In this document: one piece after another, positions 1,848 to 61,885 of the stretch | How the letters are laid out: each line of letters opens with the position of its first letter | Position numbering within the stretch: position 1 is the first letter of the stretch | DNA from: Rhodoferax saidenbachensis | GTDB lineage: Bacteria > Pseudomonadota > Gammaproteobacteria > Burkholderiales > Burkholderiaceae_C | Direction: 5' to 3' | Assembly (NCBI RefSeq): GCF_001955715.1 | Contig: NZ_CP019239.1 | Location: 3,596,001 to 3,660,000, forward strand | Length of the DNA stretch: 64,000 bases | Position numbers and translations under genes: made by a program | Notes under the pieces: generated by a model | Database searches by the model: none | What the model saw: only the letters and a program-made list of their open reading frames with translations | What the model was told of the DNA's origin: nothing

Positions 1848-2803
1848 GCTGTTATCGCCCCCGCATCCAGTGCCGTGTTTTGCAACAGGCGCACACACAG
1901 GTCTTCGTAGCTGATGCCTGCCGCTTTGGCAGACATGGGCACCAGCGAGTGGCCGGTCATACCGGGTGAGGTGTTGATCTCCAGCAAGTAGGGCGTGCGC
2001 GTTTTCGCGTCGATCATCACGTCGGCGCGCGCCCAGCCGCGGCAGCCCAGCACCTGGTAGGCCCGGCTGACCAGGGCGCGAATGGCTTCCTCTTCACCCG
2101 TGGGTAAACCGGCGGGCACGATGTACTGCGTCACGTCGGTGAAGTACTTGTTCTGGTAGTCGTAGTTGCCCTCGGGCGCCACGATGCGGATCACCGGGAA
2201 GGCTTCGGGCTGGTCGTTCGGGCCCAGCACCGGGCAGGTGACCTCGTCGCCCGCGATGAACTGTTCACACAACACCATGGCGTCGTGCTGCGAGGCCAGC
2301 GCGTAGGCCGCGTCGCACTGATCCACCGACATCACCTTGGTGAAGCCAATGCTGGAGCCTTCGCGCGCGGGTTTGACGATCATGGGCGCACCCAGCGTGG
2401 CAAATGCCGCACGGGTCTGTTCCGCGCTGAAGACCTGGCTCCACGCCGGGGTGGACAGGCCCTCAAAACGCCAGATGCGCTTGGTCATGACCTTGTCCAT
2501 GGAGATGGCAGACGCCATGACGCCGGAGCCGGTGTAGGGAATGCCCAGCAGTTCCAGCGCGCCCTGCACCGTGCCGTCTTCACCAAAACGGCCGTGCAGC
2601 GCGATAAAGCAGCGGTCAAACCCTTCGCGCTTCAAATCGTCCAGCGGACGCTCTGACGGATCAAACGCATGAGCGTTAACGCCCTTGGACAGCAAAGCCT
2701 TGAGCACGCCGCTGCCGGACATCAGCGAGACCTCGCGCTCGGCCGAGGCGCCGCCCATCAGCACGGCGACCTTTCCTAGAGTTTTAGTATCAAATTGGCC
2801 CAT
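1844..2803 (-). CDS. ddl: D-alanine--D-alanine ligase
   Basis: ATP-grasp ligase making D-Ala-D-Ala for MurF. 319 residues, the normal DdlB length. Visible motifs: [17 protein letters not shown] (residues 14-30), the ATP-grasp stretch [34 protein letters not shown], and the Mg-binding end [19 protein letters not shown]. The stop overlaps the ftsQ start by 4 nt. The start lies only 5 nt after the murC stop, and this junction, including the ddl ATG and its upstream AAGGG, sits inside a copy of the ~57-bp dispersed repeat at 2792-2849, so the first six codons are repeat-derived. Confidence 0.96.
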
Positions 2804-2849
2804 AACCCTTATCCATGCTGCGCAAGCAGCTCCTGTTTTTGTAGCATTT
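2792..2849 (-). repeat. ~57-bp dispersed repeat, copy 1 (murC/ddl junction)
   Basis: Read on the minus strand it shows the family blocks: TGCTACAAAAACAGGAGCTG, then CTTGCGCA, then AAGGGTTATGGGCCAATTT. It encodes the last 13 residues of MurC ([13 protein letters not shown]), the MurC stop, the intercistronic gap and the start of Ddl. See the finding on the whole family. Confidence 0.85.
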
Positions 2850-4236
2850 CAGCAATCTTCCCGGGCACCGCACCGATGGACCCGGCACCCATGCACATCA
2901 GCACATCGCCGTCGCGCGCGTTGTCGATGGCGATCTGCGGCATGTCGACGATGTCGTCCACAAACAGCGGCTCCACCTTGGCCGCAACACGCAGCGCGCG
3001 CGCCAGGCTGCGGCCATCGGCCGCCACGATGGGCGCCTCGCCCGCGGCATAGACCTCGGCCAGCAGCACTGCGTCGGCGCCCGCACCAATGACCTTCACA
3101 AAATCTTCAAAACAGTCGCGTGTGCGTGTGTAGCGGTGCGGCTGGAACGCCAGCACCAGACGCCGCCCCGGGAAGGCACCGCGCGCAGCAGCCAGCGTGG
3201 CCGCCATTTCGACCGGGTGGTGGCCGTAGTCGTCAATCACCGTGACCGTGCCGCCCTGGGGCAAGAGCAGATCGCCATAGCGCTGGAAGCGCCGGCCCAC
3301 ACCCTTGAACTCGGCCAACGCTTTTTGCACCGCCGCATCGGCCACGTTGAGCTCCACCGCCACGGCAATCGCCGACAGTGCATTGAGCACGTTGTGCAGA
3401 CCGGGCAGGTTCAGCACCACGTCCATGTCGGGCAGCACCACACCGTTGCGGCGCTGCACCGTGAAATGCATCTGCCCACCCACAGCGCGCACGTTGACGG
3501 CACGCACTTGGGCGTCTTCGTTGAAGCCGTAGCTGGTCACGGGACAGGTCACCTGCTCCACGATTTCACGCACGGCGGCATCGTCGGTGCACAGGATCGC
3601 TGTGCCGTAGAAAGGCATGCGGTGCAGAAAATCGACAAAGGCCTTCTTCAGGCGGCCAAAGTCGTGGCCGTAGGTTTCCATGTGGTCGGCGTCGATATTC
3701 GTCACCACCGCCATCACGGGTAACAGGTTCAAAAAGGACGCATCAGACTCGTCCGCCTCGACCACGATGTAGTCACCACTGCCCAGACGTGCATTGGCGC
3801 CTGCGCTGTTGAGGCGCCCGCCAATCACAAAGGTCGGGTCCAGCCCGGCCTCGGCCAGCACGCTGGCCACCAGGCTGGTGGTGGTGGTCTTGCCGTGCGT
3901 CCCCGCAATCGCAATGCCTTGCTTGAGGCGCATGAGTTCAGCCAGCATCAGCGCGCGCGGCACGATGGGGATCTTCATCTCCCGTGCCTTGATGACTTCG
4001 GGGTTGTCCGACTGCACGGCGGTGGACGTGACCACGGCATCGGCGCCCGTCACATGGTCGGGCGCGTGGCCCACGTGCGTCTGGATGCCCAGCGAAGCCA
4101 GACGCCTGAGCGTGGCACTGTCCGACAGGTCCGAACCCGAAATGCGGTAGCCCAGGTTGTTGAGCACTTCGGCGATACCGGACATGCCGGAGCCGCCCAC
4201 GCCCACAAAGTGAATATGTTTGATGGCGTGTTTCAT
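2809..4236 (-). CDS. murC: UDP-N-acetylmuramate--L-alanine ligase
   Basis: First amino-acid ligase of peptidoglycan precursor synthesis, adding L-Ala to UDP-MurNAc in the cytoplasm. 475 residues. N-terminal Rossmann motif [19 protein letters not shown] (residues 8-26), Mur ligase P-loop [15 protein letters not shown], and [12 protein letters not shown] and [11 protein letters not shown] in the central domain identify MurC. The ATG at 4236 overlaps the murG stop (ATGA). The C-terminal residues [13 protein letters not shown] come from a dispersed repeat, a non-conserved tail that probably tolerates replacement. Confidence 0.97.
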
Positions 4237-5309
4237 GCGACAAGCTCCTCGCAGGCGGCGACCACGGCATCGGTGGCGCTCAGTTGCTGCATCTTTTTGG
4301 CCTCCAGCCCCCGTTGGATGAGCGCAGGCCGCTCTGTTTTTTGTAGCAAATCAGCCAACTTTTGGGGCGTCATCTGGTCCTGCGGCAGCAACCAGCCGCC
4401 GCCCTGGTCGACCAGGAAACGGGCGTTGTGGGTCTGGTGGTCATCCACCGCAGCCGGGAACGGCACAAACAGCGCAGCCGCCCCCACAGCGGCAATCTCG
4501 GTCACCGTGCTGGCACCGGCGCGGCAGATCACCAAGTCGGCATCCGCAAAGGCCTGGGCCGTGTTGTCGATAAACGGTGTGAGCGTGGCCTGCACCTGGG
4601 CTGCGGCATAGTTGGCGCGCAGCTCATCGATCTGTTTCTCACCGGCTTGGTGTGTCACCACCGGGCGCTGGGCTTCGGGAATCAGGGCCAGCGCCTGCGG
4701 CACCACGGTGTTGAGCGCACGCGCGCCCAGACTACCGCCCACCACCAACACTTTGAGCGGACCGCTGCGTCCGGCAAAGCGGACTTCGGGCGCAGACTGG
4801 TTCAGGAATTCGGTACGCAGCGGATTGCCCACCCACTGTCCTTTGGCAAACACCTTGGGGAACGCCGTGAACACACGGTCGGCCACACCGGCCAGCACCT
4901 TGTTGGCCATGCCGGCCACCGAGTTCTGCTCGTGCAACACCAACGGCTTGCCCAGCAGCACACCCATCATGCCGCCCGGGAAGGTGATGTAGCCGCCCAG
5001 GCCCAGCACCACATCGGGTTGGACGCGGCGCACCACCTGAATGCTTTGCCAGAAGGCGCGCAGCAACTTGAACGGCAGCAGCACCAGCGTCTTGAGGCCC
5101 TTGCCGCGTACGCCGGAAAAATCCACCAGCTCCAGCGGAATACCGCGGGCGGGCACCAGGCGGCTTTCCATGCTGTCGGGCGCGCCCAACCAGTGCACAC
5201 GCCAGCCTTTGTCACGCAGTGCCTGCGCCACGGCGAGGCCGGGGAAGATATGGCCACCGGTACCACCGGCCATGATCAGGGCACAAGGTTGCGAGTTAAC
5301 TTGGGTCAT
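4233..5309 (-). CDS. murG: UDP-N-acetylglucosamine--N-acetylmuramyl-(pentapeptide) pyrophosphoryl-undecaprenol N-acetylglucosamine transferase
   Basis: GT28 glycosyltransferase converting lipid I to lipid II on the inner face of the cytoplasmic membrane. 358 residues. N-terminal glycine-rich loop [19 protein letters not shown] (residues 14-32), second domain loop [12 protein letters not shown], and [15 protein letters not shown] followed by [19 protein letters not shown] are MurG signatures. It overlaps ftsW and murC by 4 nt on either side. Near the C-terminus [20 protein letters not shown] is encoded by a copy of the ~57-bp repeat (4294-4350). Confidence 0.97.
4294..4350 (-). repeat. ~57-bp dispersed repeat, copy 2 (inside murG)
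   Basis: Minus-strand reading shows TTTGCTACAAAAAACAGAGC, then CCTGCGC, then CGGGGGCTGGAGGCCAAAA. It is translated in the same frame as the murC/ddl copy, giving [20 protein letters not shown]. More diverged in the middle than most copies. Confidence 0.7.
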
Positions 5310-6562: not shown

Positions 6563-8463
6563 GCCAGGTTCTCCAGTTCCACGCCCTGCGACAACGCCAA
6601 CTCTTTCACCGCGGCGCAGAACACTTGGGCCCGGTGTTCGTAGTTGTCAAACATGTCAAAACTCGCGCAAGCGGGCGACATCAGCACCGCATCCCCCGCG
6701 TGGGCCAGGCGGTTGGCATGTGCCACGGCCGCTTCCATGGACTCGGCATCAACCAGCGACACATCGGAGCCTTCCAGTGCGGCACGGATCAACGCCGCGT
6801 CGCGCCCTATCAGCACCACGGCACGTGCGTAGCGGGCCACGGGGATAGCCAGCGGCGCGAAGTCCTGCCCCTTGCCTTCACCGCCCAGAATCAACACCAC
6901 CTTGCGGTCTGCACCCAGGCCCTGCAACGCGGCCACGGTGGCGCCGACATTGGTGCCCTTGCTGTCGTCAAAGAATTCCACTTCGTTGAGGATGCCGATC
7001 GGCTCCACGCGGTGCGGCTCGCCACGGTATTCGCGCAGGCCAAAAAGGATGGGGGCCAGCGCACAACCGGCGGCAGCACTGAGTGCCAGCGCAGCGAGTG
7101 CATTGGACGCGTTGTGGCGTCCGCGGATACGCAGCGCATCGGCCGGCATCAGACGCTGGATGTGCAGCTCTTCCGCATCCTCCTTGCGCTTGCGGCGGGT
7201 TTCATCGGCTTCCAGCGCACGCACCAACCAGACCATGCCGTTGACATCTTCCAGGCCAAAGTCCCCGGGGCGCTGCGGCATGTCCACGCCAAACGTGGTG
7301 TAGGTGCGCCATAGCGGTTTTTGCAGCTTGACGCGCACCGGCTCGGGCAGCATGGCCATCACGGCCGCGTCGTCGCGGTTGAGCAACATCAGACCCCGCT
7401 GGCCAAAGATCCGCGCCTTGGCCGCGGCATAGGCCTCCATGCTGCCGTGCCAGTCCAGGTGGTCCTGCGTGACGTTGAGCACCACGGCCGCCGTGGGTTC
7501 AAAACCCTCGATGCCGTCGAGCTGGAAGCTGGACAACTCCAACACCCAGACATCCGGCAGTGTGCCGGCGTCAATATGCCCAGCCAATGTGTCGAGCAGC
7601 GTGGGGCCGATATTGCCCGCCACCGCCACCGACTTGCCCGACTGGGGCACCAGTTGGCCGGTCAGCGAAGTGACCGTGGTCTTGCCATTGGTGCCGGTAA
7701 TGGCCAACACCGCAGGGGCGTAGCCGTGCGCCACACGCAAAGCCGCCAGCGCCTCGGAATACAAGCTTAACTCGCCTCCAACGCTTACTCCGCTTGCGTG
7801 AGCAGCTACCAAAACAGGAGCAATCACGTCAGGACTCAGGCCTGGTGAGCGGTACACCGCATGTAATTCTTGCCCTTCCACCAGCGTCGCGGCAAAGGCG
7901 CCCGGCACAAACCGCACCTGGGGCAGCTCTTGTTGCAGCAGTGCCAGTTGTGGGGGGGCCTCACGCGTATCCGCCACGGTAATACTGGCAGCGCCCTGGC
8001 GCACGCACCAGCGGGCCATGGCCAGGCCGGAGGCACCCAGGCCCAGGATCAGAATGTTGCGGCCCTGCAGGGATTGCTGCGCGACAGGCGACTGCGCATC
8101 GGCCACGGTGTCGGTTTGCACCTCGTCTGGCGCGGCCTCCACCTCGTCGGTCAGGGCTGCTGGGACGGACTCCACGGCATCGTCGGCAAATATCTGCGCC
8201 ACAAAGGCAGCCGCATCCGCAGCCGCTGTGAGCGTTGTGGGCAGTGCGCGAACCGCCGGGGTGGCCTTCGCTGCAGGCACCGCATGGGCCGGATCTGGTG
8301 CCGGCACTGCGGCCTCCGAGGGTTCTACCGGTTCCACAGCTTCAACAGTCTCTGCCGTTTCGACAGGCACGACGTCCTGCACCGGTGCCTCAGGCATCGG
8401 TGCTTCCTGCGCCACCTCGGGAGGCAGCGTGGGTTCGTCGTCGTGCAGGTCGTTCGGGTTCAT
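6559..8463 (-). CDS. murD: UDP-N-acetylmuramoyl-L-alanine--D-glutamate ligase with a ~130-residue N-terminal extension
   Basis: Adds D-Glu to UDP-MurNAc-L-Ala. 634 residues from an ATG at 8463 that overlaps the mraY stop (ATGA), well above the usual 440-500. The MurD core starts only near residue 134 with [21 protein letters not shown]-loop [17 protein letters not shown] follows, then [20 protein letters not shown] and [17 protein letters not shown]. Residues 1-130 are acidic, Pro/Ala/Val/Glu-rich, repetitive and probably disordered ([18 protein letters not shown]). The core also carries a charged insert around [20 protein letters not shown] dispersed repeat encodes [16 protein letters not shown] before the P-loop. 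Enzyme identity is firm; the role of the extension is unknown. Confidence 0.95.
7769..7825 (-). repeat. ~57-bp dispersed repeat, copy 3 (inside murD)
   Basis: Minus-strand reading shows ATTGCTCCTGTTTTGGTAGC, TGCTCACGCA, then AAGCGTTGGAGGCGAGTT. It encodes [18 protein letters not shown], in the same frame as the rlmI copy. Codons here (GTA, TTA, AGC, GGA) are AT-richer than the surrounding murD codons. Confidence 0.65.
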
Positions 8464-14727: not shown

Positions 14728-14807
14728 GCCCCCACGCTTGTCACCGCGTGTACTGCGCTGCCCCCCGAGGGGGCCATCGCGCCTTGGAGCGGTCCGGCGG
14801 CGCTCAC
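14728..14807. repeat. GC-rich palindromic dispersed repeat, copy 1 (rsmH/ftsL gap)
   Basis: About 80 bp nearly identical to 29190-29269. Plus-strand blocks are GCCCCCACGCTTG, CTGCGCTGCCCCCCGAGGGG (with a CCCCC-GA-GGGGG palindrome) and CTTGGAGCGGTCCGGCG. It fills the intercistronic space between rsmH and ftsL and supplies the rsmH stop codon. Confidence 0.85.
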
Positions 14808-15745
14808 GCGTCCGTCCTCTGCGCCACACGCATGATGGCGCTGCGTGCGCGGGGATTGCCAGTGACTTCGGCCGCGCTGGGCTTGATACGGTCCAACGCC
14901 TTGAGCTTCATGACCTTGGGTGCAGCAAATGGAGCACGGCGGTCGTACTCATCGCGCGAATGCTTCGCGATGAATTGTTTGACGATGCGGTCTTCCAGCG
15001 AATGGAAGCTGATCACCGCCAGACGACCTCCTGCTTGCAACACGTCCAGGCTCCCCTCTAACGCTTGTTGCAGCTCTTCAAGCTCGGCGTTGATGAAAAT
15101 CCGAAAAGCCTGAAATGTGCGCGTTGCAGGGTCCTTGCCCGGCTCGCGGGTTTTGACCGTGTCAGCCACGAGTTGGGCCAACTCGGTGGTGGTTGAAATT
15201 GGGCCCCGTTCCTGTCGGCGAGCAACAATCGCCTTTGCAATTGCCCCAGCAAACCGTTCTTCACCATATTCACGTATCACCTCCGCGATTTGATTGAGTT
15301 CGGCTGTCTCCAGCCACTGGGCCACACTCTCGCCACGCGTCGTGTCCATGCGCATGTCCAACGGACCTTCGAAACGAAAACTGAAACCGCGCGCCGGGTT
15401 GTCGATCTGCGGCGAACTCACGCCCAGATCCATCAACAAACCGGCCACACTGGCCCGCGGCAATTCGCCCAGATGCGAAAAGCCTTCTTGGCGGATGGAA
15501 AATCGCGGGTCCTGGATGGCTCCGGACTGGGCCACGGCATCCGGGTCGCGGTCGAAAGCGATCAGGCGCCCCTGGGGCGACAAACGGGAGAGGATGAGAC
15601 GGGAATGTCCTCCGCGTCCAAATGTGGCATCCACGTACGTCCCGTCGGCCAGGGCTTCGGGCGTACCGGCGTCGCTGTTGAACAAGGCATCGACCGCTTC
15701 GTTCAACAGGACGGTGGAGTGAGTCCATGCAGCGTCCACCGTCAC
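14804..15745 (-). CDS. rsmH: 16S rRNA (cytosine(1402)-N(4))-methyltransferase
   Basis: Methylates N4 of C1402 in the 30S P site using S-adenosylmethionine. 313 residues. [13 protein letters not shown] near the N-terminus, SAM motif [16 protein letters not shown] at about 37-52, then [19 protein letters not shown], and C-terminal [14 protein letters not shown] are RsmH signatures. The start is a GTG 3 nt after the mraZ TAA, with AAGG overlapping the mraZ stop. The stop lies in the GC-rich repeat separating it from ftsL. Confidence 0.96.
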
Positions 15746-18294: not shown

Positions 18295-19374
18295 TCAGTC
18301 GCCAAACATCTTCTGCTTGAGTTCGCGGCGCTGCTGTGCTTCAAGCGACAGGGTGGCCGTAGGGCGTGCCAGCAAGCGGCCCACACCGATGGGCTCGCCC
18401 GTCTCATCGCAATAACCATAGTCGCCAGCATCAATGCGGGAAATGGATTGCTCGATCTTCTTGAGCAGCTTGCGTTCGCGGTCGCGTGTGCGCAGCTCCA
18501 GCGCATGTTCTTCTTCGATGGTGGCGCGGTCGGCCGGGTCAGGCACCACGGAGGTGTCTTCGCGCAGGTGCTCGGTGGTTTCACCGGCGCTGTTGAGGAT
18601 GTCGCGCTTGAGAACTGACAGCTTCAGGCGAAAGGCCGCCATCTGCACTTCGTTCATGTACTCCGAATCGGGCATGGCCATCAAATCCGCATCTGTCAGC
18701 TCAGCCACGGGTTTGGTTTTCCAGTTGTTGGCCAGCTTGGGGTCCTTCTTGATGGAGGAAGGCAGAGCCGGAACGATCACATGGGTAGGTGCCGATTGGG
18801 TGTAGCTGGCCTTGGCAGCGGTGGATGCCACCGATTGCGCCATGGAGGGCACGGTCAGGGATGCCAGACGCGACGAAGGGCGTCCCGCCTTGGCAGGAAC
18901 GGCGGCAGGCACGGGAACAGGGGAAACGGGGGCAGCTTTGACTGCAGTAGGAGCGACGGACAACGGAGTTTTTTCCTTGATTTTGACGGGAGCAGGTACC
19001 GGTTTGGCCGGTACTTTGGCAACGGGTTTTGCGACCGGTTTGGCAACAGCCTTGGGTGTTGGTTTGGCCACGGGCTTCACCAGCTTGCCAACACTTTTGG
19101 CCACTGGCTTGGCCGGGGCTTTGGCGGCTGGTTTGGCTGGCTTTGCAACAGGCTTTGCCGGGGCTTTCTTGGCCACAGGTTTTGCCACGGGTTTCGCCTT
19201 GGCAGCAGGTTTGGCGACGGCTTTGACAGGGGCCTTGGCTACGGGTTTTGCCACAGGCTTGACCGGTTTCGCAACAGGCTTCGCCGGGGCTTTTGGGGCC
19301 ACTGGCTTGGCAACGGGTTTCGCCTTGCCCTTGGGGGCAATCGCTTTGGTATTTTTCCCGGATTTGGCTTTCAC
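18295..19374 (-). CDS. dksA: RNA polymerase-binding transcription factor DksA, zinc-finger-less, with long Lys/Pro/Ala N-terminal tail
   Basis: Secondary-channel regulator of RNA polymerase that works with ppGpp. Only the last ~150 residues are DksA: YMNEVQMAAFRLKLSVLKRD, coiled-coil tip DPADRATIEEEHALELRTRD, and GYCDETGEPIGVGRLLARPT. The four-Cys zinc finger of E. coli DksA is reduced to one Cys. Ahead lies a basic tail of AKPVAKP-type repeats resembling histone H1 or alginate-regulatory AlgP-type tails. I choose a GTG at 19374 (359 residues) because AGGAG sits 7 nt upstream; an ATG at 19488, with GGGAG upstream, gives 397 residues and cannot be excluded. It lies downstream of a COG0523 GTPase. 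Confidence 0.9.
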   Translation of the reverse strand: MKAKSGKNTKAIAPKGKAKPVAKPVAPKAPAKPVAKPVKPVAKPVAKAPVKAVAKPAAKAKPVAKPVAKKAPAKPVAKPAKPAAKAPAKPVAKSVGKLVKPVAKPTPKAVAKPVAKPVAKVPAKPVPAPVKIKEKTPLSVAPTAVKAAPVSPVPVPAAVPAKAGRPSSRLASLTVPSMAQSVASTAAKASYTQSAPTHVIVPALPSSIKKDPKLANNWKTKPVAELTDADLMAMPDSEYMNEVQMAAFRLKLSVLKRDILNSAGETTEHLREDTSVVPDPADRATIEEEHALELRTRDRERKLLKKIEQSISRIDAGDYGYCDETGEPIGVGRLLARPTATLSLEAQQRRELKQKMFGD

Positions 19375-19525
19375 TTCTTGTCTCCTGGCAGAGCTGGCCT
19401 GCGCGTGCTCGGTGGGGGTTTCTCCGGCGCGCGAGTGTACAGGTTTCGTCTTCGTAAAACCCATCAGTTGCAAAATCGAGACAATCATTGCACTCCCTGC
19501 GAGAAATTAAAGTTTTTCATACGAA

Positions 19526-20696: not shown

Positions 20697-21878
20697 TCAT
20701 TTGCGCATCACCACCAGCCCCTTCAAATACTCCCCTTCGGGAAAGGCAATGGTCATCGGGTGGTCAGGCGCGCCGCCCATGCGCTCGGTGATGAAGCCGT
20801 CCACCCCCGCGTCCGAGCCCGCAGAGGCCACAATCTTGTGGAACAGGTCCGCGCTGATGCCGCCCGAGCAGGAGTAAGTGAACAACACGCCACCTGGCTC
20901 CAGCAGCTTGAACGCCAGGCGGTTGATGTCCTTGTAGGCCCGTGCGGCGCGCTCGGCGTGCGCCACCGTGGGTGCGAACTTGGGCGGATCAAGCACGATG
21001 GCATCAAAAGTACGGCCCTCGGTGGCGAACTGGCGCAGAGATGCGTTCACGTCGGCGTCCATGAACGTGGCGCGCTCAGGGGCAAAGCCGTTGAGCGCCA
21101 CGTTGGCCTGCGCCTTCTCGATGGCCGGTCCGCTAGAGTCAATCGAGGTCACGTGCGCCGCGCCGCCCGACAACGCCGCCACGGTGAAACCGCCCGTGTA
21201 GCAATAACAGTTCAACACGCGCTGGAACTGCAGGCGCTGCGCCGCATCGGCAAAGCGTTTGCGGCTGTCGCGCTGGTCCAGGTAGAAACCCGTCTTGTGG
21301 CCCTCAGCCACGCTCAGGGCCAGCTTCCAGTTGTGCTCTTGCAGGATCAGGTTGGTCTCGCCGCTGCCACGCAACCAGCCTTTGACCTCGGGCAGCCCCT
21401 CCAGCCCACGGCTGCTGGCGTCGGAGCGCTCGTACAAACGCGTGAGCCCCGTCTCGGCCAGGAGCGCGTCGGCCAGCACATCCTTCCAGCGTTCGGCGCC
21501 CGCAGACGTGAACTGCGCCACCAAGGTGTCGCCATACCGGTCCACGATCAACCCGGGCAGGCCGTCGGATTCGCCGTGGACTAGCCGCACGCCGTCACTT
21601 TTTATGTCAAATCGCCCTCTAGCCCTTATGGATTGTGCGCAAGCAGCTATTAAAAACGGAGCATCTATGCGCTGCTGCTCGTCAAAACTCCAGATCCGCG
21701 CGCGGATTTTTGACGCGGGGCTGAATGCGGCCCAGGCCAGGAACTGACCCTCGGACGACTCCACGCGCACGGTTTCACCAGGATCACCACCGCCGCGCTG
21801 AATCGCCGATTCAAAAATCCAGGGATGGTGACGTAATAGGGAGCGCTCTTTCCCGGCGCGCAGTCTTAGGGTTTTCAT
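20697..21878 (-). CDS. rlmI: 23S rRNA (cytosine(1962)-C(5))-methyltransferase RlmI-like
   Basis: SAM-dependent rRNA m5C methyltransferase. 393 residues, matching E. coli RlmI (396), from ATG 21878. N-terminal PUA-like segment (LRLRAGKERSLLRHHPWIFE), RlmI-type middle segment GESDGLPGLIVDRYGDTLV, Rossmann methylase motif VLNCYCYTGGFTVAALSGG, catalytic-loop motifs VLDPPKF and FTYSCSGGIS. A copy of the ~57-bp repeat encodes DAPFLIAACAQSIRARGRFD in the variable region before GESDG. Transcribed towards the COG0523 gene. Confidence 0.93.
   Translation of the reverse strand: MKTLRLRAGKERSLLRHHPWIFESAIQRGGGDPGETVRVESSEGQFLAWAAFSPASKIRARIWSFDEQQRIDAPFLIAACAQSIRARGRFDIKSDGVRLVHGESDGLPGLIVDRYGDTLVAQFTSAGAERWKDVLADALLAETGLTRLYERSDASSRGLEGLPEVKGWLRGSGETNLILQEHNWKLALSVAEGHKTGFYLDQRDSRKRFADAAQRLQFQRVLNCYCYTGGFTVAALSGGAAHVTSIDSSGPAIEKAQANVALNGFAPERATFMDADVNASLRQFATEGRTFDAIVLDPPKFAPTVAHAERAARAYKDINRLAFKLLEPGGVLFTYSCSGGISADLFHKIVASAGSDAGVDGFITERMGGAPDHPMTIAFPEGEYLKGLVVMRK
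21609..21665 (-). repeat. ~57-bp dispersed repeat, copy 4 (inside rlmI)
   Basis: Minus-strand reading shows GATGCTCCG, TAGCTGCTTGCGCACAATCC and AAGGGCTAGAGGGCGATTT. One of the closest copies to the apparent consensus. Translated as DAPFLIAACAQSIRARGRFD, the same frame as the murD copy. Confidence 0.85.
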
Positions 21879-28219: not shown

Positions 28220-29269
28220 TCAGGGCGCGTCTTCCCGGTTTTTTTTGCGGCCCAACTTTGCACGCGGATGCGCTGCGTCATAGGCCTTGGCAAGGTGCTG
28301 AAAATCCAGCCGCGTATAGACCTGGGTGGTCGTGATGTTGGCATGGCCCAGCAGTTCCTGCACGGCCCGCAAATCCCCACTGCTTTGCAGCATATGACTG
28401 GCAAACGAATGGCGCAGCATGTGCGGGTGCACCGGTGTGGCCATGCCTGCCATCAGGCTGCGCCGCTTGAGCCGTTGCCAGACCGACTGGGCGGTCAGCC
28501 GGGTTCCATTGCGACCGGTAAACAGGGCGCTGGCCGCATCGGCCTGCGTGGCGGCTACGGGTGCCGCCGTTTGTGTGCCGCTGGGGCCGCGCAGCTGAAG
28601 CCAGCGCTCCAGCGCCTGCAACGCCACCTTGCCTACGGGAGCAGTGCGGCGTTTGGAACCCTTGCCCAGTACATGCGCCTCGGCGGCCTGCATGTCGACC
28701 CAGCCGCGTGCCGTGGTGCTGGCCACCACGTCCAGCCCCACCAGCTCGCCCACACGCAGGCCACTGCCGTACAGCAGCTCGACCATGGCCGCATCACGGG
28801 CTTCCAGCCAGGCGTCGTCGTCACTCTGGAAATCGGCAAACTGCACCGCGTCGTCCACGGCCAGTGCCTTGGGCAGGGGTTTGGGGGCTTTGGGGGAGCG
28901 CACATCCTGCACCGGGTTGCTGGCCACCAGCCCCTGGCGCCCCAGCCAGGTGTAAAAGCCACGCCAGCCCGACAGAATCAGCGCAATACCGCGTCCGCTG
29001 CGCCCACCACTGTGCATCTGTGCAACCCAGCGGCGGATATGGTTGTTTTTGACGTCCGGCAGCGCAACCGGGACCTTGGCGGCAAAGCTGCTGAGTTTTT
29101 GCAGATCCAGCGCATAGAGCTCTACCGTGCGCGCGGCCAGCCGTTTCTCGACGCGCACATATTCGAGGTATTTCTCGATCAGGTCTGTCGCCCCCACGCT
29201 TGCCACTGCGTGTGCTGCGCTGCCCCCCGAGGGGGCCTTCGCAACTTGGGGCGGCCCGGCGTTGCTCAT
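28220..29269 (-). CDS. xerC: Site-specific tyrosine recombinase XerC
   Basis: Acts with XerD at dif to resolve chromosome dimers. 349 residues. N-terminal SAM-like domain (IEKYLEYVRVEKRLAARTVE), catalytic domain with Arg in LLYGSGLRVGELVGLD, Lys in VLGKGSKRR, HPHMLRHSFASH, LLGHANITTTQVYTR (Tyr nucleophile). The first 27 residues are encoded by the GC-rich repeat at 29190-29269, whose last bases form the ATG; family members usually begin close to DLIEKYLEY, so a later GTG within the repeat is an alternative start. It is third in dapF-DUF484-xerC, the usual proteobacterial order, and is not a phage integrase. Confidence 0.93.
   Translation of the reverse strand: MSNAGPPQVAKAPSGGSAAHAVASVGATDLIEKYLEYVRVEKRLAARTVELYALDLQKLSSFAAKVPVALPDVKNNHIRRWVAQMHSGGRSGRGIALILSGWRGFYTWLGRQGLVASNPVQDVRSPKAPKPLPKALAVDDAVQFADFQSDDDAWLEARDAAMVELLYGSGLRVGELVGLDVVASTTARGWVDMQAAEAHVLGKGSKRRTAPVGKVALQALERWLQLRGPSGTQTAAPVAATQADAASALFTGRNGTRLTAQSVWQRLKRRSLMAGMATPVHPHMLRHSFASHMLQSSGDLRAVQELLGHANITTTQVYTRLDFQHLAKAYDAAHPRAKLGRKKNREDAP
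29190..29269. repeat. GC-rich palindromic dispersed repeat, copy 2 (xerC N-terminus)
   Basis: Closely matches 14728-14807 over its whole length: GCCCCCACGCTTGCCACTGC, GCTGCCCCCCGAGGGGGCC, ACTTGGGGCGGCCCGGCG. On the minus strand its last bases give the xerC ATG and it encodes the N-terminal residues MSNAGPPQVAKAPSGGSAAH and following. Confidence 0.85.
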
Positions 29270-29287
29270 GCAGCATCACCCACGTTA

Positions 29288-29986: not shown

Positions 29987-30870
29987 GGGTTGTCTGTCAA
30001 GTTGTCAGGTAGTTCAATTTCACCCTGGAACACGGTGGTGGCCGGCCCCGTCATGAAGACCGGTGCATCCGCACCAGCCCAGTTAATGGTCAGCACACCG
30101 CCGTGGGTTTGCACGTCCACCGTGGCATCCAGCAGCCCCAGGCGAATACCGGCCACCACGGCCGCGCAGGCACCCGTGCCGCAGGCCAGCGTTTCACCCA
30201 CGCCGCGCTCAAACACCCGCAGGCGGATGTGGCTGCGGTTCACCACCTGCATGAAGCCCACGTTCACGCCTTCGGGAAACCGCGGGCTGGCCTGCACCTG
30301 CGGGCCCTGTGCAACTACAGGCGCCGTGTCCACGTTGTCCACCAGGGTCACCGCATGCGGGTTACCCATGGACACAGTTGCTATCAAAAGCGGAGCTACT
30401 TGCGCACTATCCACAAGGACTAGAGGCCAATTTCCCCATGAACCCATAGGTTGCCAGGCCAAACCGGCGCCATCAAACGGAATGTCTTCCAGCACAAAAC
30501 GCGGCGGCCCCATGTCGACCGTCACGCGGCCATCGGCCGTGAGGCGGGGCGCAATCACGCCCTTCATGGTCTGCACGCGGATGGTGTCTTTGGTGGTCAG
30601 GCCGCGGTCGTGCACAAAACGGGCAAAGCAGCGCGCGCCATTGCCACACTGCTCCACCTCGTTGCCATCGGCGTTGTGGATCACGTATTCAAAGTCCACA
30701 TCGGCGGACGGTGCGGGCCGCACGGTCAGTATCTGGTCCGCGCCCACCCCAAAGTGGCGGTCGCCCAGAAAGCGGTAGTGCGCAGCGCCCAGGCCCAGGC
30801 GGCCTTGGGTTTCGTCCAGCACAACAAAGTCGTTGCCGGCCCCCTGCATTTTGGTGAATGGAATGCGCAT
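29983..30870 (-). CDS. dapF: Diaminopimelate epimerase
   Basis: Converts LL- to meso-diaminopimelate for lysine and for the MurE step, without a cofactor. 295 residues from ATG 30870 (beginning [19 protein letters not shown]); E. coli DapF has 274. Catalytic Cys75 lies in [13 protein letters not shown] and the second Cys in [13 protein letters not shown]. Between LAWQPMGSW and [12 protein letters not shown] the stretch [19 protein letters not shown] is encoded by a ~57-bp repeat lying antisense to the gene (30378-30433), which accounts for some of the extra length. Confidence 0.96.
30378..30433 (+). repeat. ~57-bp dispersed repeat, copy 5 (inside dapF)
   Basis: Plus-strand reading shows TTGCTATCAAAAGCGGAGCT, ACTTGCGCACTATCCACAAG and GACTAGAGGCCAATTT. 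It is antisense to dapF, which reads it as [19 protein letters not shown] immediately before the conserved SMGNPH motif. Confidence 0.85.
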
Positions 30871-31034
30871 GCGGCAATTATCGCCCTCCCAGACCACTCC
30901 ACGCAGCGAAGAGCTGACGGTCTGTGCGTTTTGCGTAGGTAAAGGGGGAGCCCGCAAAGCGGGCGGAGGACACGGAGCAAAACGTACAGGCCGTCAGCCC
31001 CCACACACGCCGCCGCAGCGTGTTTGGCGTCACA

Positions 31035-34937: not shown

Positions 34938-34988
34938 GGTGTCCCCCTCAAAGAACAATGGAAGGTTAACCATACAACAAAATAAGTG

Positions 34989-35424
34989 TGAAGCCCACCG
35001 ATAAGCCGGATTCTGTGCATGCGGGTTTCCCCGCATGTGACCACCATTAATCTGGGCCGCTGGTCACCCAGCGGCTCGGTGCTACCTACCCGCACACTCC
35101 GGGGGCCCCGTCAACGTGTGCCTACTTGGTATTGCTGCGCGTAGAGATTGCCCGTTTCACCCAATGCGGGCCTTGCCCGCATTGGGTGGCTACGCGTTCC
35201 CGGTTGCCCGGGGCACGGCTTGCGCCGCGCTGTACGCGTAGAACACCCGACGGGATGCCTACATTGACTCGTCTCTGTTGCTCTAATCCTCACCTTAGGG
35301 CCCACCACTTGCGTGGAAAGCTTGTCAGTGGACAGTCGTTAACTGCTACGCTGCCCTGTGCAGTCCGGACGTTCCTCCAGTGCCTGGTTTCCCAGATTGC
35401 ACCAGCGGTGGTCTGGCGGGCTTC
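34989..35424 (-). ncRNA. rnpB: RNase P RNA (bacterial class A)
   Basis: Catalytic RNA of RNase P, which trims tRNA 5' leaders. On the minus strand the 5' region reads GAAGCCCGCCAGACC, followed by GGGAAACCAG, the conserved GAGGAACGTCCGGACTGCAC block and GGCAGCGTAGCAGTTAACG; the 3' half has GGTAGGTAGCACCGAGCC, and the end is AGAATCCGGCTTATCGGTGG followed by GCTTC. The 5' GAAGCCCGCC pairs with GGTGGGCTTC at the 3' end. About 436 nt, slightly long for the class. Ends are placed to within a few bases. Confidence 0.93.
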
Positions 35425-50990: not shown

Positions 50991-51040
50991 CCGTTCGCCC
51001 TGAGCTTGTCGAAGCCCTTCGACAAGCTCAGGGCGAACGG
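50991..51040. repeat. Perfect inverted repeat, 24-bp arms (REP-like element)
   Basis: CCGTTCGCCCTGAGCTTGTC plus GAAG, 2-nt centre CC, then the exact reverse complement. This palindrome, with TTCGACAAGCTCAGG, resembles a repetitive element I have seen in many proteobacterial genomes. It sits between pyrC and the DUF3025 gene and could fold in RNA as a long hairpin or terminator-like block. Confidence 0.9.
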
Positions 51041-52097: not shown

Positions 52098-52138
52098 ACC
52101 CGCTATTGTCCCAAATCACGGCCCCGCCTCAGGCCAGC

Positions 52139-54060: not shown

Positions 54061-54168
54061 ACCCGGATTATCCGCGCAGGCTTGGGACTCGACGCCGGGC
54101 ACAGGTTGGGCGTAAACTGGTCGCCACCCCCGCCCCTGTACCTTGCTGAAAGAAGACCAACTGTTGCC

Positions 54169-56277: not shown

Positions 56278-56345
56278 GACAGAGGAAGCAGACGCCATAA
56301 AACCGCAGTGACAATCAGCGGAGAAATCACCCGAGGAAAAACACC

Positions 56346-57640: not shown

Positions 57641-57728
57641 GGGGAAGATCGGTCCATTGAAAAGAGCAGGGAGTGTAGCGGGGCCGCCATCTGGCGGTAG
57701 GATGGTGCCAGTACACACCGCGCTCACC

Positions 57729-58157
57729 ATGCCACGCATCCAACTCACTCCCGCCAATACATACCCGTTTGCCACCGACATCCAGATCTACATCAGCCAC
57801 GTCAACCAGGGCGGGCACTTGGACAACGCGCAACTGCTCACACTGGTGTCGGAGGCGCGGGTGCGCTTTTTCAAGGCGCTGGGCTACTTTGAATCGGGTG
57901 TGGAAGGTGCGCTGATCGTGGTGGGTGACATCGTGGCGCAGTACAAGTCCGAAGGCTTCCACGGCGAGACCATGCAGGTGGAGATGGGGCCGACCGATTT
58001 CAACAAATACGGCTTTGACCTGCAGTTTCGTATGCGCGAGAAAGAAACCCACCGCGACGTGGCGTTGGGCAAGATCGGCATCGTCTTCATCACCGCGCAC
58101 GACCGCAAGGTGATGCCGGTACCGCCTGCGTTTCTGCAGCGCTTGGGCACGCTTTAG
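57729..58157 (+). CDS. Hotdog-fold thioesterase (4HBT family)
   Basis: 142 residues from ATG 57729. YISHVNQGGHLDNAQLLTLV with SEARVRFFKALGY carries the 4-hydroxybenzoyl-CoA-thioesterase pattern of HxNxxxYxxxxExAR type, with Asn/Asp changes; DIVAQYKSEGFHGETMQVEM and GKIGIVFITAHDRK complete the hotdog fold. Presumably hydrolyses an acyl-CoA; substrate unknown. Confidence 0.85.
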   Translation: MPRIQLTPANTYPFATDIQIYISHVNQGGHLDNAQLLTLVSEARVRFFKALGYFESGVEGALIVVGDIVAQYKSEGFHGETMQVEMGPTDFNKYGFDLQFRMREKETHRDVALGKIGIVFITAHDRKVMPVPPAFLQRLGTL

Positions 58158-58198
58158 TCCTCTCGGCGCTGTTGCGCCTTCGTGCAAGCCGCCCCAAA

Positions 58199-58256
58199 TC
58201 GCTATTATTTGTATAGCTGCTTGCGAACAATCCATGAGGCCTAGAGGCCTAAAAAA
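58199..58256 (+). repeat. ~57-bp dispersed repeat, copy 9 (intergenic)
   Basis: Plus-strand reading shows TCGCTATTATTTGTATAGCT, GCTTGCGAACAATCCATGAG and GCCTAGAGGCCTAAAAA. Between the thioesterase stop and the ABC exporter stop, a convergent intergenic site. Confidence 0.85.
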
Positions 58257-58264
58257 CTTAAAAC

Positions 58265-60091
58265 TTACTCCGTACTCTGCTGCATTGCCCACATGGCCGC
58301 ATAACGGCCATTGGTCGCCATCAGCTGGGCGTGGTTGCCACGTTCGATGATGCGGCCGGCGTCCATGACCAAGATTTCGTGCGCGTCCACCACGGTGGAG
58401 AGGCGGTGTGCGATGACCAGAGTGGTTTTGTTGTGGGCCACGTTTTGCAGCTCGGCCTGGATGGCGCGTTCGTTGGCGCTGTCCAGCGCGCTGGTGGCTT
58501 CGTCGAAGATCATGATGGGCGGGTTCTTCAGCAGCGTGCGGGCAATCGCCACGCGCTGCTTCTCGCCACCGGACAACTTCAGCCCGCGCTCGCCGACCAT
58601 GGTGTCGTAGCCCTTGGGCGCGGCGGAGATGAAGCCGTGGATGTGCGCAGCCCGTGCCGCCGCCTCCACCTCGGCACGACCGGCGCCGGGGCGACCGTAG
58701 GCGATGTTGTATTCCACCGTGTCGTTGAACAACACGGTGTCTTGCGGCACGATGCCCAGAGCCTGGCGCACGCTGCTTTGGGTGACCTGCTTGATGTCCT
58801 GCCCACCAATCACGATGCGACCGTGCTGCACGTCATAGAAGCGAAACAACAGCCGTGCCAGCGTGGACTTGCCCGAGCCGCTGGGCCCGACCACGGCGAC
58901 GGTCTTGCCGGCAGGAATCTCGAAGCTGATGTGGTGCAAGATGGTTCTGGCGGGGTCGTAGCCGAAGGTAACGTCCTCAAACTGCACGCTGGCGTCCTTC
59001 GCGCCGTGGGGCAACGACAGCGCCTGTGCACCGGGCACGTCGGCAATCTCGCGCTCTCGCTCCATCAGCGTGAACATCTTTTCCAGGTCGGTCAGGCTCT
59101 GCTTGATCTCGCGGTAGATCACGCCCAAAAAGTTCAGCGGGATGTAGAGCTGGATCATGAAGGCGTTGACCATCACCAGGTCGCCCAGCGTCATGCGCCC
59201 TTCCACCACACCCTGGGTGGCGCGCCACAGCATGGTGACCAGGGCCACGGCGATGATGAGTTGCTGGCCGGTGTTGAGCAATGAGAGCGTGGTCTGGCTC
59301 TTGACCGCAGCACGGCGGTAACGCTCCAGGTTTTCGTCGTAACGGGCAGCTTCGAACTCTTCGTTGTTGAAGTACTTGACGGTCTCGTAGTTCAGCAACG
59401 AGTCGATGGCACGGCTGTGGGCCGTGGAATCCATATCATTCATCTTCTTGCGGAACTGTGTGCGCCACTCGGTCACGCTGATGGTGAAGGCGATGTAGAC
59501 CACCAGCGCCACGATGGTGATGCCGGCAAACCAGACGTCAAACTTGACCGCCAGGAGCGTGAGCACCAGTGTCACTTCGATCAGCGTAGGGATGATGCTG
59601 TAGAGCGAATAACTGATGAGTTGGTGCACACCGCGCGTGCCGCGTTCGATGTCGCGTGTCATGCCGCCGGTCTGGCGTTCCAAATGGAAGCGCAGGCTCA
59701 GGGCGTGCAGGTGGCGAAACACTTCTAGGCTGATGCTGCGCGACGCGCCTTCCGTAGCTTTCGCAAACACCAGCTCACGCAGCTCGGCAAACAGCGAAGT
59801 GGACAGGCGCAGCGCGCCATACCCCAGCAGCAATGCCACCGGCACCACCAGCAGGGCTGTGGCATCACCGGGTTTGAGCGTCATTGCGTCCACCAGGGTC
59901 TTGAGCAGCAGCGGCACCCCCACGTTGGCCAGCTTGGCACCAATCATGAAGGCCAGCGCCGCTATCACGCGCCATTTGTAAACCCACAGATAAGGGAACA
60001 GGCGGCGCAATGTGGCCCAGTCGGATTTGGGGGGGGCAGAGGCAGCGGGGGGCGCGGCGAGGGGCAAGGCAGAAGGGGCAGAGGCGCGCAT
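58265..60091 (-). CDS. ABC exporter of the Atm1/HMT1 type (fused TMD-NBD)
   Basis: 608 residues from ATG 60091. After a Pro/Ala-rich tail, six membrane helices; the half-transporter shows Atm1-type features: FHLERQTGGMTRDIERGTRG, SLLNYETVKYFNNEEFEAAR and AVKSQTTLSLLNTGQQLIIA. ATPase domain with Walker A VVGPSGSGKSTLARLL, Q-loop VPQDTVLFN, signature KLSGGEKQRVAIARTLL, Walker B PIMIFDEATSALDSANE and His-switch VIAHRLSTV. Bacterial Atm1 relatives export glutathione conjugates or metal-glutathione complexes; the substrate here is inferred. Confidence 0.93.
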   Translation of the reverse strand: MRASAPSALPLAAPPAASAPPKSDWATLRRLFPYLWVYKWRVIAALAFMIGAKLANVGVPLLLKTLVDAMTLKPGDATALLVVPVALLLGYGALRLSTSLFAELRELVFAKATEGASRSISLEVFRHLHALSLRFHLERQTGGMTRDIERGTRGVHQLISYSLYSIIPTLIEVTLVLTLLAVKFDVWFAGITIVALVVYIAFTISVTEWRTQFRKKMNDMDSTAHSRAIDSLLNYETVKYFNNEEFEAARYDENLERYRRAAVKSQTTLSLLNTGQQLIIAVALVTMLWRATQGVVEGRMTLGDLVMVNAFMIQLYIPLNFLGVIYREIKQSLTDLEKMFTLMEREREIADVPGAQALSLPHGAKDASVQFEDVTFGYDPARTILHHISFEIPAGKTVAVVGPSGSGKSTLARLLFRFYDVQHGRIVIGGQDIKQVTQSSVRQALGIVPQDTVLFNDTVEYNIAYGRPGAGRAEVEAAARAAHIHGFISAAPKGYDTMVGERGLKLSGGEKQRVAIARTLLKNPPIMIFDEATSALDSANERAIQAELQNVAHNKTTLVIAHRLSTVVDAHEILVMDAGRIIERGNHAQLMATNGRYAAMWAMQQSTE

Positions 60092-60132
60092 GGGAAAATT
60101 CGTTATTTCGTGTTCAGAATAGGATTGTGACC

Positions 60133-60543
60133 ATGTCCAGCCCCAACAGCCCCCTCCCCGTTTCATTACCCACTGACGCCGAGTTGGTGCTCAAAGTGAT
60201 TCCCATGCCCGCCGACACCAATGGCAATGGCGATATCTTTGGCGGTTGGGTCATGGCCCAGGTGGACTTGGCCGGATCGGTACTGCCCGCCCGCATCGCC
60301 GACGGGCGCCTGGCCACGGTGGCGGTGAACGAGTTCATCTTCAAACAACCGGTGCGCGTGGGCGACATTCTCTCGCTCTACGCCCGCGTCACACGGGTGG
60401 GCCGTACCTCCATCACGGTCAAGGTCGAGGCCTATACCGAGCGCTTCCGCACACAGGGGCAGTACATCAAGGTGACCGAGGCATCGCTGACCTACGTGGC
60501 AATTGACGACAACGGGCAACCCCGGGAAATACCCAAGCGCTGA
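60133..60543 (+). CDS. Acyl-CoA thioesterase YciA-like
   Basis: 136 residues from ATG 60133. The YciA/BACH hotdog motif PADTNGNGDIFGGWVMAQVD is at 24-43, with VAVNEFIFKQPVRVGDILSL and the strand TSITVKVEAYTERFR. Broad acyl-CoA hydrolase in the cytoplasm. Divergent from the ABC exporter, 41 nt between starts. Confidence 0.93.
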   Translation: MSSPNSPLPVSLPTDAELVLKVIPMPADTNGNGDIFGGWVMAQVDLAGSVLPARIADGRLATVAVNEFIFKQPVRVGDILSLYARVTRVGRTSITVKVEAYTERFRTQGQYIKVTEASLTYVAIDDNGQPREIPKR

Positions 60544-60617
60544 ATCGGCTTTTTCCCCTATATTGGCCGCAGGCCCGCGCCCGCGGGGTCAGGCGAATAT
60601 GGGGGAGAACCGGATCC

Positions 60618-61718
60618 ATGCGACACACCTACCTGACTTGGGCTCTGCTGACTGTGGCCTGCGGCACTGCCCAGGCCCAGGCGTGGTACCAGATGGACAG
60701 CCCCGAGAGAATCCAGTCCGGCCTGGTCACCCACGCCTCACGCCTGCATGTATTCAAGCCCGCCGCCTCTCTGCGCGTGCTCCCGCCCGCGCCCGCTACC
60801 GAGAACACGCAACGGCTTGCCCGCGAAGGCAAATCCTTCGCCAGCAGCGCCTATTCCGCCCTGCTCATTGAGAACGGGAACCTGGTTTTCGAGGAGTACG
60901 CGCAGGGAGCCTCGGCGCAAACACCGCTGAACGCCTATTCGATGACCAAAAGCTGGCCCGCGCTGGCGGTGGGCGAGGCGCTGTGTGCAGGAAAGATCAA
61001 GAGCCTGGATGACCCGGCCCAGCTCTATGCGCCGCAGCTCAAAGGGACCGCTTACGGCGAGGCCAGTGTGCGCAATCTGCTGCGCTACACCAGCGGTGCT
61101 GAAGACCCGGGTGGCAACGGCTATGTCGGCATTCACAGCCTGCCAGCTTTCAAAAGCATGACCGAACACAAGATGTCGCTGGTGGAGCTTCTCAAAAAGT
61201 ACGGCGGCAGCGGTCGCTTCAAGGCGGGCGAGAAGTTTGTCTACAACGGCCTGGATTCGGAAGCACTCAGCATCGTGGTGCGCGAGGCCACAGGCATGGC
61301 ATTACCCGCCTGGTTCGAAGCCACGGTCTGGCAGCAGGCGGGGGGCGAATCTCCGGCTGCCTGGTACCTGGACAGTGAGGGCAATGGCATCGCGGAAGTT
61401 TTGCTCTTTGCCACCACCCGGGACTTTGCCCGCATAGGGCTGTATGTACTGGAGCGCCTGACCGACAAAGCGGGTAGCCCTTGCATGCAGGAATTTGTGA
61501 AGGAAGCCGCCAAACCACTGGTCGCCAAAGGCTACTGGGACGCCGCACCGCAATGGGGGCTCGGACTGCACACGGGTGCTGACGGCAACACCTGGATGTT
61601 TGGACACGCGGGCCAACGCGTCGGCATCAACGTCAAGAACGGTCGCGTTTTTGCAACCAACTCCATGCGGGACACCACCATGACCGACTCCAGCGCACGC
61701 AGCTTGCTGGCCCGCTGA
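60618..61718 (+). CDS. Secreted serine hydrolase (beta-lactamase/esterase class C fold)
   Basis: 366 residues with a signal peptide (TWALLTVACGTAQA, cleavage after AQA near 20). Catalytic SxxK motif SMTK in NAYSMTKSWPALAVGEALC; second motif Tyr in FVYNGLDSEAL; third-motif equivalent GHAGQRVGINV. Related to 6-aminohexanoate-dimer hydrolases and EstB-type esterases rather than true beta-lactamases. Substrate unknown. Confidence 0.85.
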   Translation: MRHTYLTWALLTVACGTAQAQAWYQMDSPERIQSGLVTHASRLHVFKPAASLRVLPPAPATENTQRLAREGKSFASSAYSALLIENGNLVFEEYAQGASAQTPLNAYSMTKSWPALAVGEALCAGKIKSLDDPAQLYAPQLKGTAYGEASVRNLLRYTSGAEDPGGNGYVGIHSLPAFKSMTEHKMSLVELLKKYGGSGRFKAGEKFVYNGLDSEALSIVVREATGMALPAWFEATVWQQAGGESPAAWYLDSEGNGIAEVLLFATTRDFARIGLYVLERLTDKAGSPCMQEFVKEAAKPLVAKGYWDAAPQWGLGLHTGADGNTWMFGHAGQRVGINVKNGRVFATNSMRDTTMTDSSARSLLAR

Positions 61719-61828
61719 GACGTTTTGGCGGGTACTGGGCGCGTCACGGCAGTTGCCGCATGGCCGAACGATACGGCTGCAAGTGTTCAAAGAAAATAGG
61801 GGCGGCAGCTCCGACGGTCAGGCTTGTA

Positions 61829-61885
61829 TTTGCTCCTGATTTCGTAGCTGCTTGCGCAATGCCCACGGGGGCTAGAGGCTAATTT
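61829..61885 (+). repeat. ~57-bp dispersed repeat, copy 10 (intergenic)
   Basis: Plus-strand reading shows TTTGCTCCTGATTTCGTAGC, TGCTTGCGCAATGCCCACG and GGGGCTAGAGGCTAATTT. Between the serine hydrolase and DUF1428 genes; a full, well-conserved copy in non-coding DNA. Confidence 0.88.

What the first reader, a model, noticed from the sequence alone, without database searches (positions are those of the whole stretch)
2792..61885. A ~57-bp dispersed repeat with ten copies in 64 kb, eight of them in protein-coding genes
Copies at 2792, 4294, 7769, 21609, 30378, 31452, 45912, 50407, 58199 and 61829 share three blocks in fixed order: T(T)TGCT(AT/CC), then AGCTGCTTGCGCA, then GGGCTAGAGGCCAATTT. Both orientations occur. 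Only two copies are intergenic; the others lie in or across murC/ddl, murG, murD, rlmI, dapF, an MBL-fold gene, a COG2509 gene and a DUF3025 gene. The length (about 57, i.e. 19 codons) keeps frame. I recall similar elements in Comamonadaceae genomes but know of no name, mechanism or function. It looks like a mobile or gene-converting element that tolerates translation. Inference: spread by an unknown in-trans activity, or maintained as a chromosomal signal site.
Basis: partly seen in the sequence, partly recalled or inferred. Interest (0 to 1): 0.85.

Follow-up and report, generated by a model that had tools for sequence, protein, structure and literature searches.

The report
Probable DNA-uptake watermark in Comamonadaceae
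Several hundred copies of a 70-base DNA signal are written into this bacterium's genes and gene gaps by ordinary base changes rather than by insertion, and they behave like the "self-DNA" tags that Haemophilus and Neisseria use to choose which DNA to take up, but in an unrelated and much longer form.

Summary
The repeat is real: all ten reported copies match a profile built from 30 copies elsewhere in the genome (E 5e-16 to 4e-5). The unit is about 70 bp, not 57; 70 copies in 464 kb imply roughly 640 per genome.

It is not inserted. Where relatives lack it, the site usually keeps its length (RlmI gap-free in 27 of 28 orthologues; no 70-bp gap in nine anchored "absent" comparisons). Positions are conserved between species of 77% identity and, in RlmI, across genera.

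It is a double-stranded signal: no hairpin, no strand bias, A-tracts that avoid TpA, and one column that switches from G to C between species while the sites stay put.

Copies are enriched between genes. Both element-free 20-kb bins hold likely acquired loci. It occurs in 53 of 126 sampled genera of its family and is abundant or absent within one genus.

Best reading: an uptake signal sequence for natural transformation. Pilus-dependent, sequence-selective uptake is published for Comamonadaceae without a named signal (PMC4212676, passages). Uptake was not tested and no receptor was found. Insertion, hairpin and gene-conversion models fit poorly.

The parts
2780..2850 (-). element copy 1, across the ddl start / murC end
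   Evidence: profile 51.4 bits; same site in G001 and G007
4282..4352 (-). element copy 2, inside murG
   Evidence: profile 25.9 bits; gap-free with 18 relatives; only element-rich relatives keep partial scores, 3.6-17.5 bits in five of 18
7756..7826 (-). element copy 3, inside murD
   Evidence: profile 21.5 bits; gap-free across the element in 24 relative rows; 14-35 bits in six element-rich relatives
21597..21667 (-). element copy 4, inside rlmI
   Evidence: profile 56.5 bits; 27 of 28 orthologues gap-free; score at least 16.8 bits in 8 of 9 element-rich Rhodoferax and 8 of 10 other genera, at most 7.4 in 9 low/zero-copy Rhodoferax
30375..30445 (+). element copy 5, inside dapF (gene on - strand)
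   Evidence: profile 46.4 bits; low/zero-copy relatives 6-12 nt shorter here in 8 of 9
   Evidence: profile 52.2 bits; length-variable stretch, element-poor relatives -24 to +33 nt
   Evidence: profile 22.3 bits; same site in G001 and G007
   Evidence: profile 30.3 bits; same site in G001 and G007
58196..58266 (+). element copy 9, intergenic
   Evidence: profile 41.1 bits; no copy seen at this place in G001 or G007
61827..61897 (+). element copy 10, intergenic
   Evidence: profile 53.1 bits; outside the syntenic blocks compared

Best explanation
The element is a double-stranded DNA recognition site about 70 bp long (AT-rich blocks near columns 3, 14, 58 and 68 around two conserved cores, AGCTGCTTGCGCA and GGGCTAGAGGCC), written into existing sequence by base substitution and kept up at the same places over long times (shown). 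It most likely works as an uptake signal sequence for natural transformation: a type IV pilus minor pilin or similar receptor prefers DNA that carries it, recombination then replaces weaker sites by stronger ones, and the motif accumulates by molecular drive, avoiding newly acquired DNA and drifting into dialects when the receptor changes (inferred). It works like Haemophilus USS and Neisseria DUS but is an independent and longer kind.
For: Shown: about 640 copies per genome estimated (70 in 464 kb; 532 v 34 control). In-place origin. Fixed positions between species at 77% identity: 16 of 25 and 18 of 24 G000 sites shared, 13 of each at the identical aligned base. Dialect: column 44 is G in 64 of 70 own copies and C in 32 of 35 in G007; 10 of 14 orthologous pairs are G-to-C. 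A-tract rule: TpA in 3 and 1 of 70 copies against 21 and 24 expected; AA/TT/AT steps peak at 10.9 bp (P 0.0003-0.023 by shuffle type). No strand bias (43:49; 13:15 against genes). Intergenic excess 20 of 69 against 8.0%. Bin counts under-dispersed (index 0.48, P=0.006). Both empty 20-kb bins hold likely acquired loci. Plasmids 3 of 72,556 and phages 0 of 50,697. [quoted passage not shown] USS are not insertions, tested the same way (PMC1626085); DUS dialects (PMC3630211). Verminephrobacter eiseniae uptake is pilus-dependent and selective, and Acidovorax temperans transformed only with own-species DNA (PMC4212676).
Against: No uptake was measured and no receptor found. ComEC is nearly universal (246 of 250; 89 of 90 element-bearing genomes), so it does not track the element; the ComEA model was uninformative. 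70 bp and 69 bits is far longer than known 9-12 bp cores or the roughly 31-bp USS. Gap lengths between copies have CV 0.90, near random, despite the even bin counts. Element-poor genomes showed no replacement motif in the one sampled (G018, 342.5 kb). Conserved sites were selected by both copies being detectable, which inflates their identity.
Confidence: 0.58

Rival explanations
1. A chromosome-wide binding site for a nucleoid, segregation or supercoiling protein (for example a gyrase-like wrapping complex), kept at hundreds of places by selection for chromosome structure.
For: Length, phased A-tracts, fixed positions, under-dispersed bin counts, scarcity on plasmids and phages and dialects all fit a protein that bends or wraps DNA.
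Against: No replichore orientation. Selection would have to act on each of hundreds of sites inside enzymes such as MurD and RlmI.
Confidence: 0.25
2. A drive motif for another transfer route, such as gene transfer agent or generalised-transducing packaging, where DNA with the site is exported or packaged preferentially.
For: The same population-level signature as uptake: in-place accumulation, dialects, scarcity in acquired DNA.
Against: No packaging genes were looked for or linked; only 7 stretches among 2.9 million viral contigs hold an exact 28-base pattern that 8 of 70 sampled own copies match.
Confidence: 0.07
3. A selfish repeat family homogenised by ectopic gene conversion between copies.
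For: Species-wide change at columns 44 and 27 resembles concerted evolution.
Against: Low-information columns inside orthologous copies keep 0.56-0.60 identity, similar to the right flank (0.53-0.57) and not far below the left (0.69-0.70); blockwise copying from unrelated copies should randomise them (13 and 14 site pairs). New sites show no length change.
Confidence: 0.06
4. A non-autonomous mobile element (MITE, REP or Rickettsia-palindrome type) inserted in trans.
For: High copy number, both orientations and some intergenic preference.
Against: No palindrome or covarying stem; no 70-bp empty site in nine usable comparisons; most sites shared between species.
Confidence: 0.03

Closest known systems
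Haemophilus/Pasteurellaceae uptake signal sequence (USS)
   Same: High-copy motif on both strands; core plus AT-tracts one helical turn apart; arises by substitution, not insertion (PMC1626085 section 7); depleted in acquired DNA and coding sequence (PMC7811141 passages); lineage variants.
   Different: About 70 bp against a 9-bp core or roughly 31-bp motif; different sequence (only TGCG is common to both cores, a recalled comparison); Comamonadaceae; uptake not tested; receptor unknown.
Neisseria DNA uptake sequence (DUS) and its dialects
   Same: Family-wide motif with species-constant dialects (PMC3630211 abstract and passages); betaproteobacterial host (family placement recalled).
   Different: Unrelated, far longer sequence with A-tracts; no ComP receptor shown.
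BRE, the Betaproteobacterial repeat element of Hot et al. 2011 (PMC3110155, section 14 read)
   Same: Dispersed repeat in Comamonadaceae, sometimes inside genes.
   Different: BRE is about 90 bp, 69% GC, often tandem and variable in number; this element is 46% GC, has no neighbour closer than 1 kb among 34 gaps, and numbers hundreds rather than at most 29. The BRE sequence itself was not compared.
REP/BIME and MITE repeats; Rickettsia palindromic elements (the last recalled)
   Same: Short, high-copy, partly intragenic.
   Different: Those are palindromic or inserted; neither property is met here.

Membership tests
DNA uptake sequence (USS/DUS) | Strongly over-represented motif scattered over the chromosome | tested here: met
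   532 v 34 control; 70 copies in 464 kb
DNA uptake sequence (USS/DUS) | Arises in place by substitution, not insertion | tested here: met
   RlmI 27 of 28 gap-free; murG 18 and murD 24 rows gap-free across the element; none of nine usable absent comparisons near -70. Small differences at dapF and the 31.45-kb gene
DNA uptake sequence (USS/DUS) | Both orientations, no replication bias | tested here: met
   43 leading: 49 lagging of 92
DNA uptake sequence (USS/DUS) | Under-represented in coding sequence | tested here: met
   28 of 69 fully inside genes against 82.8% of random 70-mers (own crude gene calls)
DNA uptake sequence (USS/DUS) | Depleted in newly acquired DNA | tested here: inconclusive
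   Both of 2 empty bins of 32 hold likely acquired loci; 25 of 35 copies in the 54% of a 264-kb region that aligns to G001, P=0.03; few plasmid and phage matches, but the number of Comamonadaceae records is unknown
DNA uptake sequence (USS/DUS) | Lineage-specific dialects | tested here: met
   Columns 44 and 27; other genera
DNA uptake sequence (USS/DUS) | Promotes preferential DNA uptake by competent cells | not testable with these tools
   Needs an uptake assay
DNA uptake sequence (USS/DUS) | Cognate receptor on the type IV pilus | not tested
   No receptor candidate; ComEC and ComEA searches did not discriminate
DNA uptake sequence (USS/DUS) | Short core of 9-12 bp (or a 31-bp extended USS) | tested here: not met
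   About 70 conserved columns. A descriptive trait rather than the functional definition
REP / MITE | Palindrome or terminal inverted repeats | tested here: not met
   No long-range covariation, no consensus fold, dyad score 3.2 against null 95% 10.1
Mobile insertion (MITE, RPE) | Empty sites shorter by the element length, with or without target duplication | tested here: not met
   Nine usable absent comparisons, none near -70
BRE | About 90 bp, 69% GC, tandem arrays | tested here: not met
   46% GC; no gap under 1 kb of 34; features of BRE

The most novel reading that the evidence does not exclude
The motif is not an uptake tag but a new kind of chromosome-wide site, recognised over seven helical turns by sequence and A-tract shape, that either organises the chromosome or drives its own spread by a transfer route not yet described, with receptor-matched dialects across a whole bacterial family.
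Probability: 0.3. Interest if true: 0.92.

Novelty: new variant of a known kind. Interest (0 to 1): 0.85.

Why it matters
Uptake sequences are described for Pasteurellaceae and Neisseriaceae (PMC7811141 passages). A third, independently evolved system in a large environmental family would show that self-tagging of genomes recurs, with a recognition site several times longer than any known, and with element-rich and element-free species in one genus for natural comparison. It also offers a candidate for the missing signal behind published selective transformation in Verminephrobacter and Acidovorax temperans (PMC4212676). For annotators: the motif translates into recurring peptides (IAACAxSxRARG; NWPLALxDSAQAA) that appear in unrelated proteins and can mislead homology searches.

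Tried and rejected
Hairpin RNA or REP-like structure: no long-range mutual information in 94 copies, only neighbouring columns; RNAalifold gave two invariant pairs; no Rfam match except RNase P at gathering threshold. Dyad symmetry of the own dialect: not above shuffled columns, although G212 copies look more symmetric (GCGCTT...AAGCGC, by eye). Overall AT periodicity: an 11.0-bp peak, but an equal one at 7.9 bp and P 0.15-0.22 with block shuffles; only the AA/TT/AT steps gave P 0.015-0.023 with blocks. RNA-level signal: orientation to genes 13:15. Alternative dialect in an element-free genome: none evident among over-represented 9- and 11-mers of G018. Competence genes as a correlate: ComEC present in 89 of 90 element-bearing and 157 of 160 other genomes; ComEA hits were mostly below cut-off and in frames of about 800 aa. 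RlmI tree: label changes 3 (bootstrap 3-4), but well-supported branches force only 1, so repeated loss or gain is suggested, not shown. Strict pattern with at most 3 mismatches over 41 bases: none in the own genome, because copies vary more than that.

Caveats: sampled stretches in G148, G129 and G212 were partly chosen around known matches, so their densities are not unbiased. Six of the 70 sampled own copies were also profile seeds. In one search one of 125 comparisons (G001 site 55302) produced an empty target and a stale score; it is dropped. Four others are one locus in reversed orientation and are counted neither as shared nor as absent.

Papers: not-in-print statements rest, an open-licence PMC library only. 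PMC7811141, PMC3630211 and PMC2346458: passages (and the abstract of PMC3630211). PMC1626085: passages and section 7. PMC4212676: passages and section 21. PMC3110155: passages and section 14. PMC12616744: abstract and outline. Others: search listings.
Full report
What is there. A profile built from 30 copies outside the window finds all ten reported sites. In the window plus 20 regularly spaced 20-kb stretches (464 kb) it finds 70 copies at E below 0.01, six of which had served as seeds; that density implies about 640 in the 4.26-Mb chromosome. The conserved part runs over about 70 columns with 69 bits and is 46% GC in a window of 62% GC. The consensus is (A)AATTGCTATTAAATTAGTAGCTGCTTGCGCACTATCCATGAGGGCTAGAGGCCAATTTGACTCAAAAT.

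Not a structure-forming or RNA element. In 94 distinct copies only neighbouring columns depend on one another; no consensus fold appears; the own dialect has no significant dyad. Copies inside genes run 13 with and 15 against the gene, and 43:49 relative to replication. What varies together are A-tract triplets: AAA, AAT, ATT and TTT are common at columns 13-15, but a TpA step occurs in 3 of 70 copies where 21 steps are expected, and at 57-59 in 1 where 24 are expected. AA/TT/AT steps recur with a 10.9-bp period. This is what a protein reading rigid, narrow-groove A-tracts on one face of double-stranded DNA would leave.

Not an insertion. In murG and murD, relatives with no or few elements have the same length and ordinary GC-rich codons. 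In RlmI, 27 of 28 orthologues are gap-free across the site (one has 12 extra bases). The profile scores at least 16.8 bits there in 8 of 9 element-rich Rhodoferax and 8 of 10 element-rich other genera, and at most 7.4 bits in all 9 low- or zero-copy Rhodoferax; G009, G138 and G129 are element-rich yet score 0-8.9. The other-genus genomes had been picked as element-rich, and 6 of 34 genomes gave no RlmI match at the threshold. At dapF, 8 of 9 low- or zero-copy relatives are 6-12 bases shorter, and in the gene at 31.45 kb lengths vary by -24 to +33, so small indels do occur there. DapF in the PDB comparison is also 11 residues shorter around this place, while MurG, MurD and RlmI align with few gaps. 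In three species at 77% identity, 125 anchored comparisons (both directions counted) gave 111 with the element in the same place (66 with no length difference, 88 within 3 bases), one invalid, four that are a single locus in reversed orientation, and nine absent: differences 0 (five), -1, -9 and +227 (two). None is near -70. Some absent sites are visibly half-eroded rather than empty.

Old, fixed and yet evolving in concert. Of G000 copies lying in syntenic alignments, 16 of 25 recur in G001 and 18 of 24 in G007, 13 of each at the identical aligned base. High-information columns are 0.79 identical there, low-information columns 0.56-0.60, flanks 0.53-0.70 (the first figure is inflated because both copies had to be detectable). 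Yet column 44 is G in 64 of 70 own copies and C in 32 of 35 in G007, with 10 of 14 orthologous pairs changed; G001 is mixed, 17 C and 16 G. Column 27 shifts from T (59 of 70) to C (25 of 35). Other genera have further variants. Hundreds of unlinked sites following one species-specific preference is the signature of a shared reader.

Where it occurs. Exact 36-base matches in 84,980 species genomes gave 54 stretches, named Rhodoferax, Polaromonas, Curvibacter or unclassified Pseudomonadota, Burkholderiales and betaproteobacterial bins. In 300 genomes of the order, one genome outside the family has a single match. A plain blastn of the consensus hits 3 of 72,556 plasmids and 0 of 50,697 phages; the same search gives 31 rows for the 70 own copies, so it is about half-sensitive for this dialect and less for others.

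Placement. Of 69 sampled own copies, 20 are intergenic and 21 straddle a gene end, against 8.0% and 9.2% for random 70-mers. Intergenic copies score higher (mean 49 against 39 bits). Counts per 20 kb are under-dispersed (index 0.48, P=0.006), and no two of 35 neighbouring copies lie within 1 kb, though the overall gap distribution is near exponential (CV 0.90). The two empty bins of 32 correspond to a stretch with a phage integrase and a type I restriction system beside ordinary genes and to a surface-polysaccharide locus. In coding copies one frame per orientation dominates (8 of 13 and 13 of 15), those with the fewest stop codons.

Mechanism. These are the traits reported for USS and DUS: they arise by substitution (PMC1626085 section 7), are underrepresented in newly acquired and coding DNA, can be explained by molecular drive from biased uptake, and in Haemophilus pair a core with rigid AT-tracts (PMC7811141 passages); dialects mark lineages (PMC3630211). 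In Comamonadaceae, type IV-pilus-dependent and selective transformation was reported for Verminephrobacter eiseniae, and Acidovorax temperans was transformed only by own-species DNA; the passages I saw name no signal (PMC4212676). I therefore favour an uptake signal (0.58). Not shown: uptake itself, a receptor, or any gene that tracks presence; ComEC does not. A chromosome-architecture site remains the main rival (0.25).

Noticed in passing
14728-14809 and 29190-29271: A second, GC-rich dispersed repeat of about 82 bp (87% identical pair); size and GC resemble the published BRE, but the sequences were not compared.
   Followed up: no
50991-51040: Perfect 24-bp inverted repeat with TTCGACAAGCTCAGG; TTCGACAGGCT/TTCGACAAGCT 11-mers are strongly over-represented in the own-genome sample (15 and 10 against 0.2 and 0.14 expected), a probable REP-like family.
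   Followed up: partly
30908-30995: A stretch around the dapF start and adjacent gap that matches elsewhere in G009 (87%, two contigs) and G022 (94%): another dispersed repeat.
   Followed up: no
genome position about 3,746,900-3,746,975 (L164, about 6,900-6,975): The element sits at the same intergenic spot in G000 and in G001/G007 but in opposite orientation: in-place inversion or independent gain.
   Followed up: partly
18998-19327: Short degenerate repeats of 12-bp steps inside the gene called at 18295-19488, a low-complexity protein tail.
   Followed up: no
34986-35424: RNase P RNA class A on the - strand.
   Followed up: no
L036 4,000-20,000: Element-free stretch with an integrase, type I restriction-modification genes and two PF00144 (beta-lactamase-family) genes.
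   Followed up: partly
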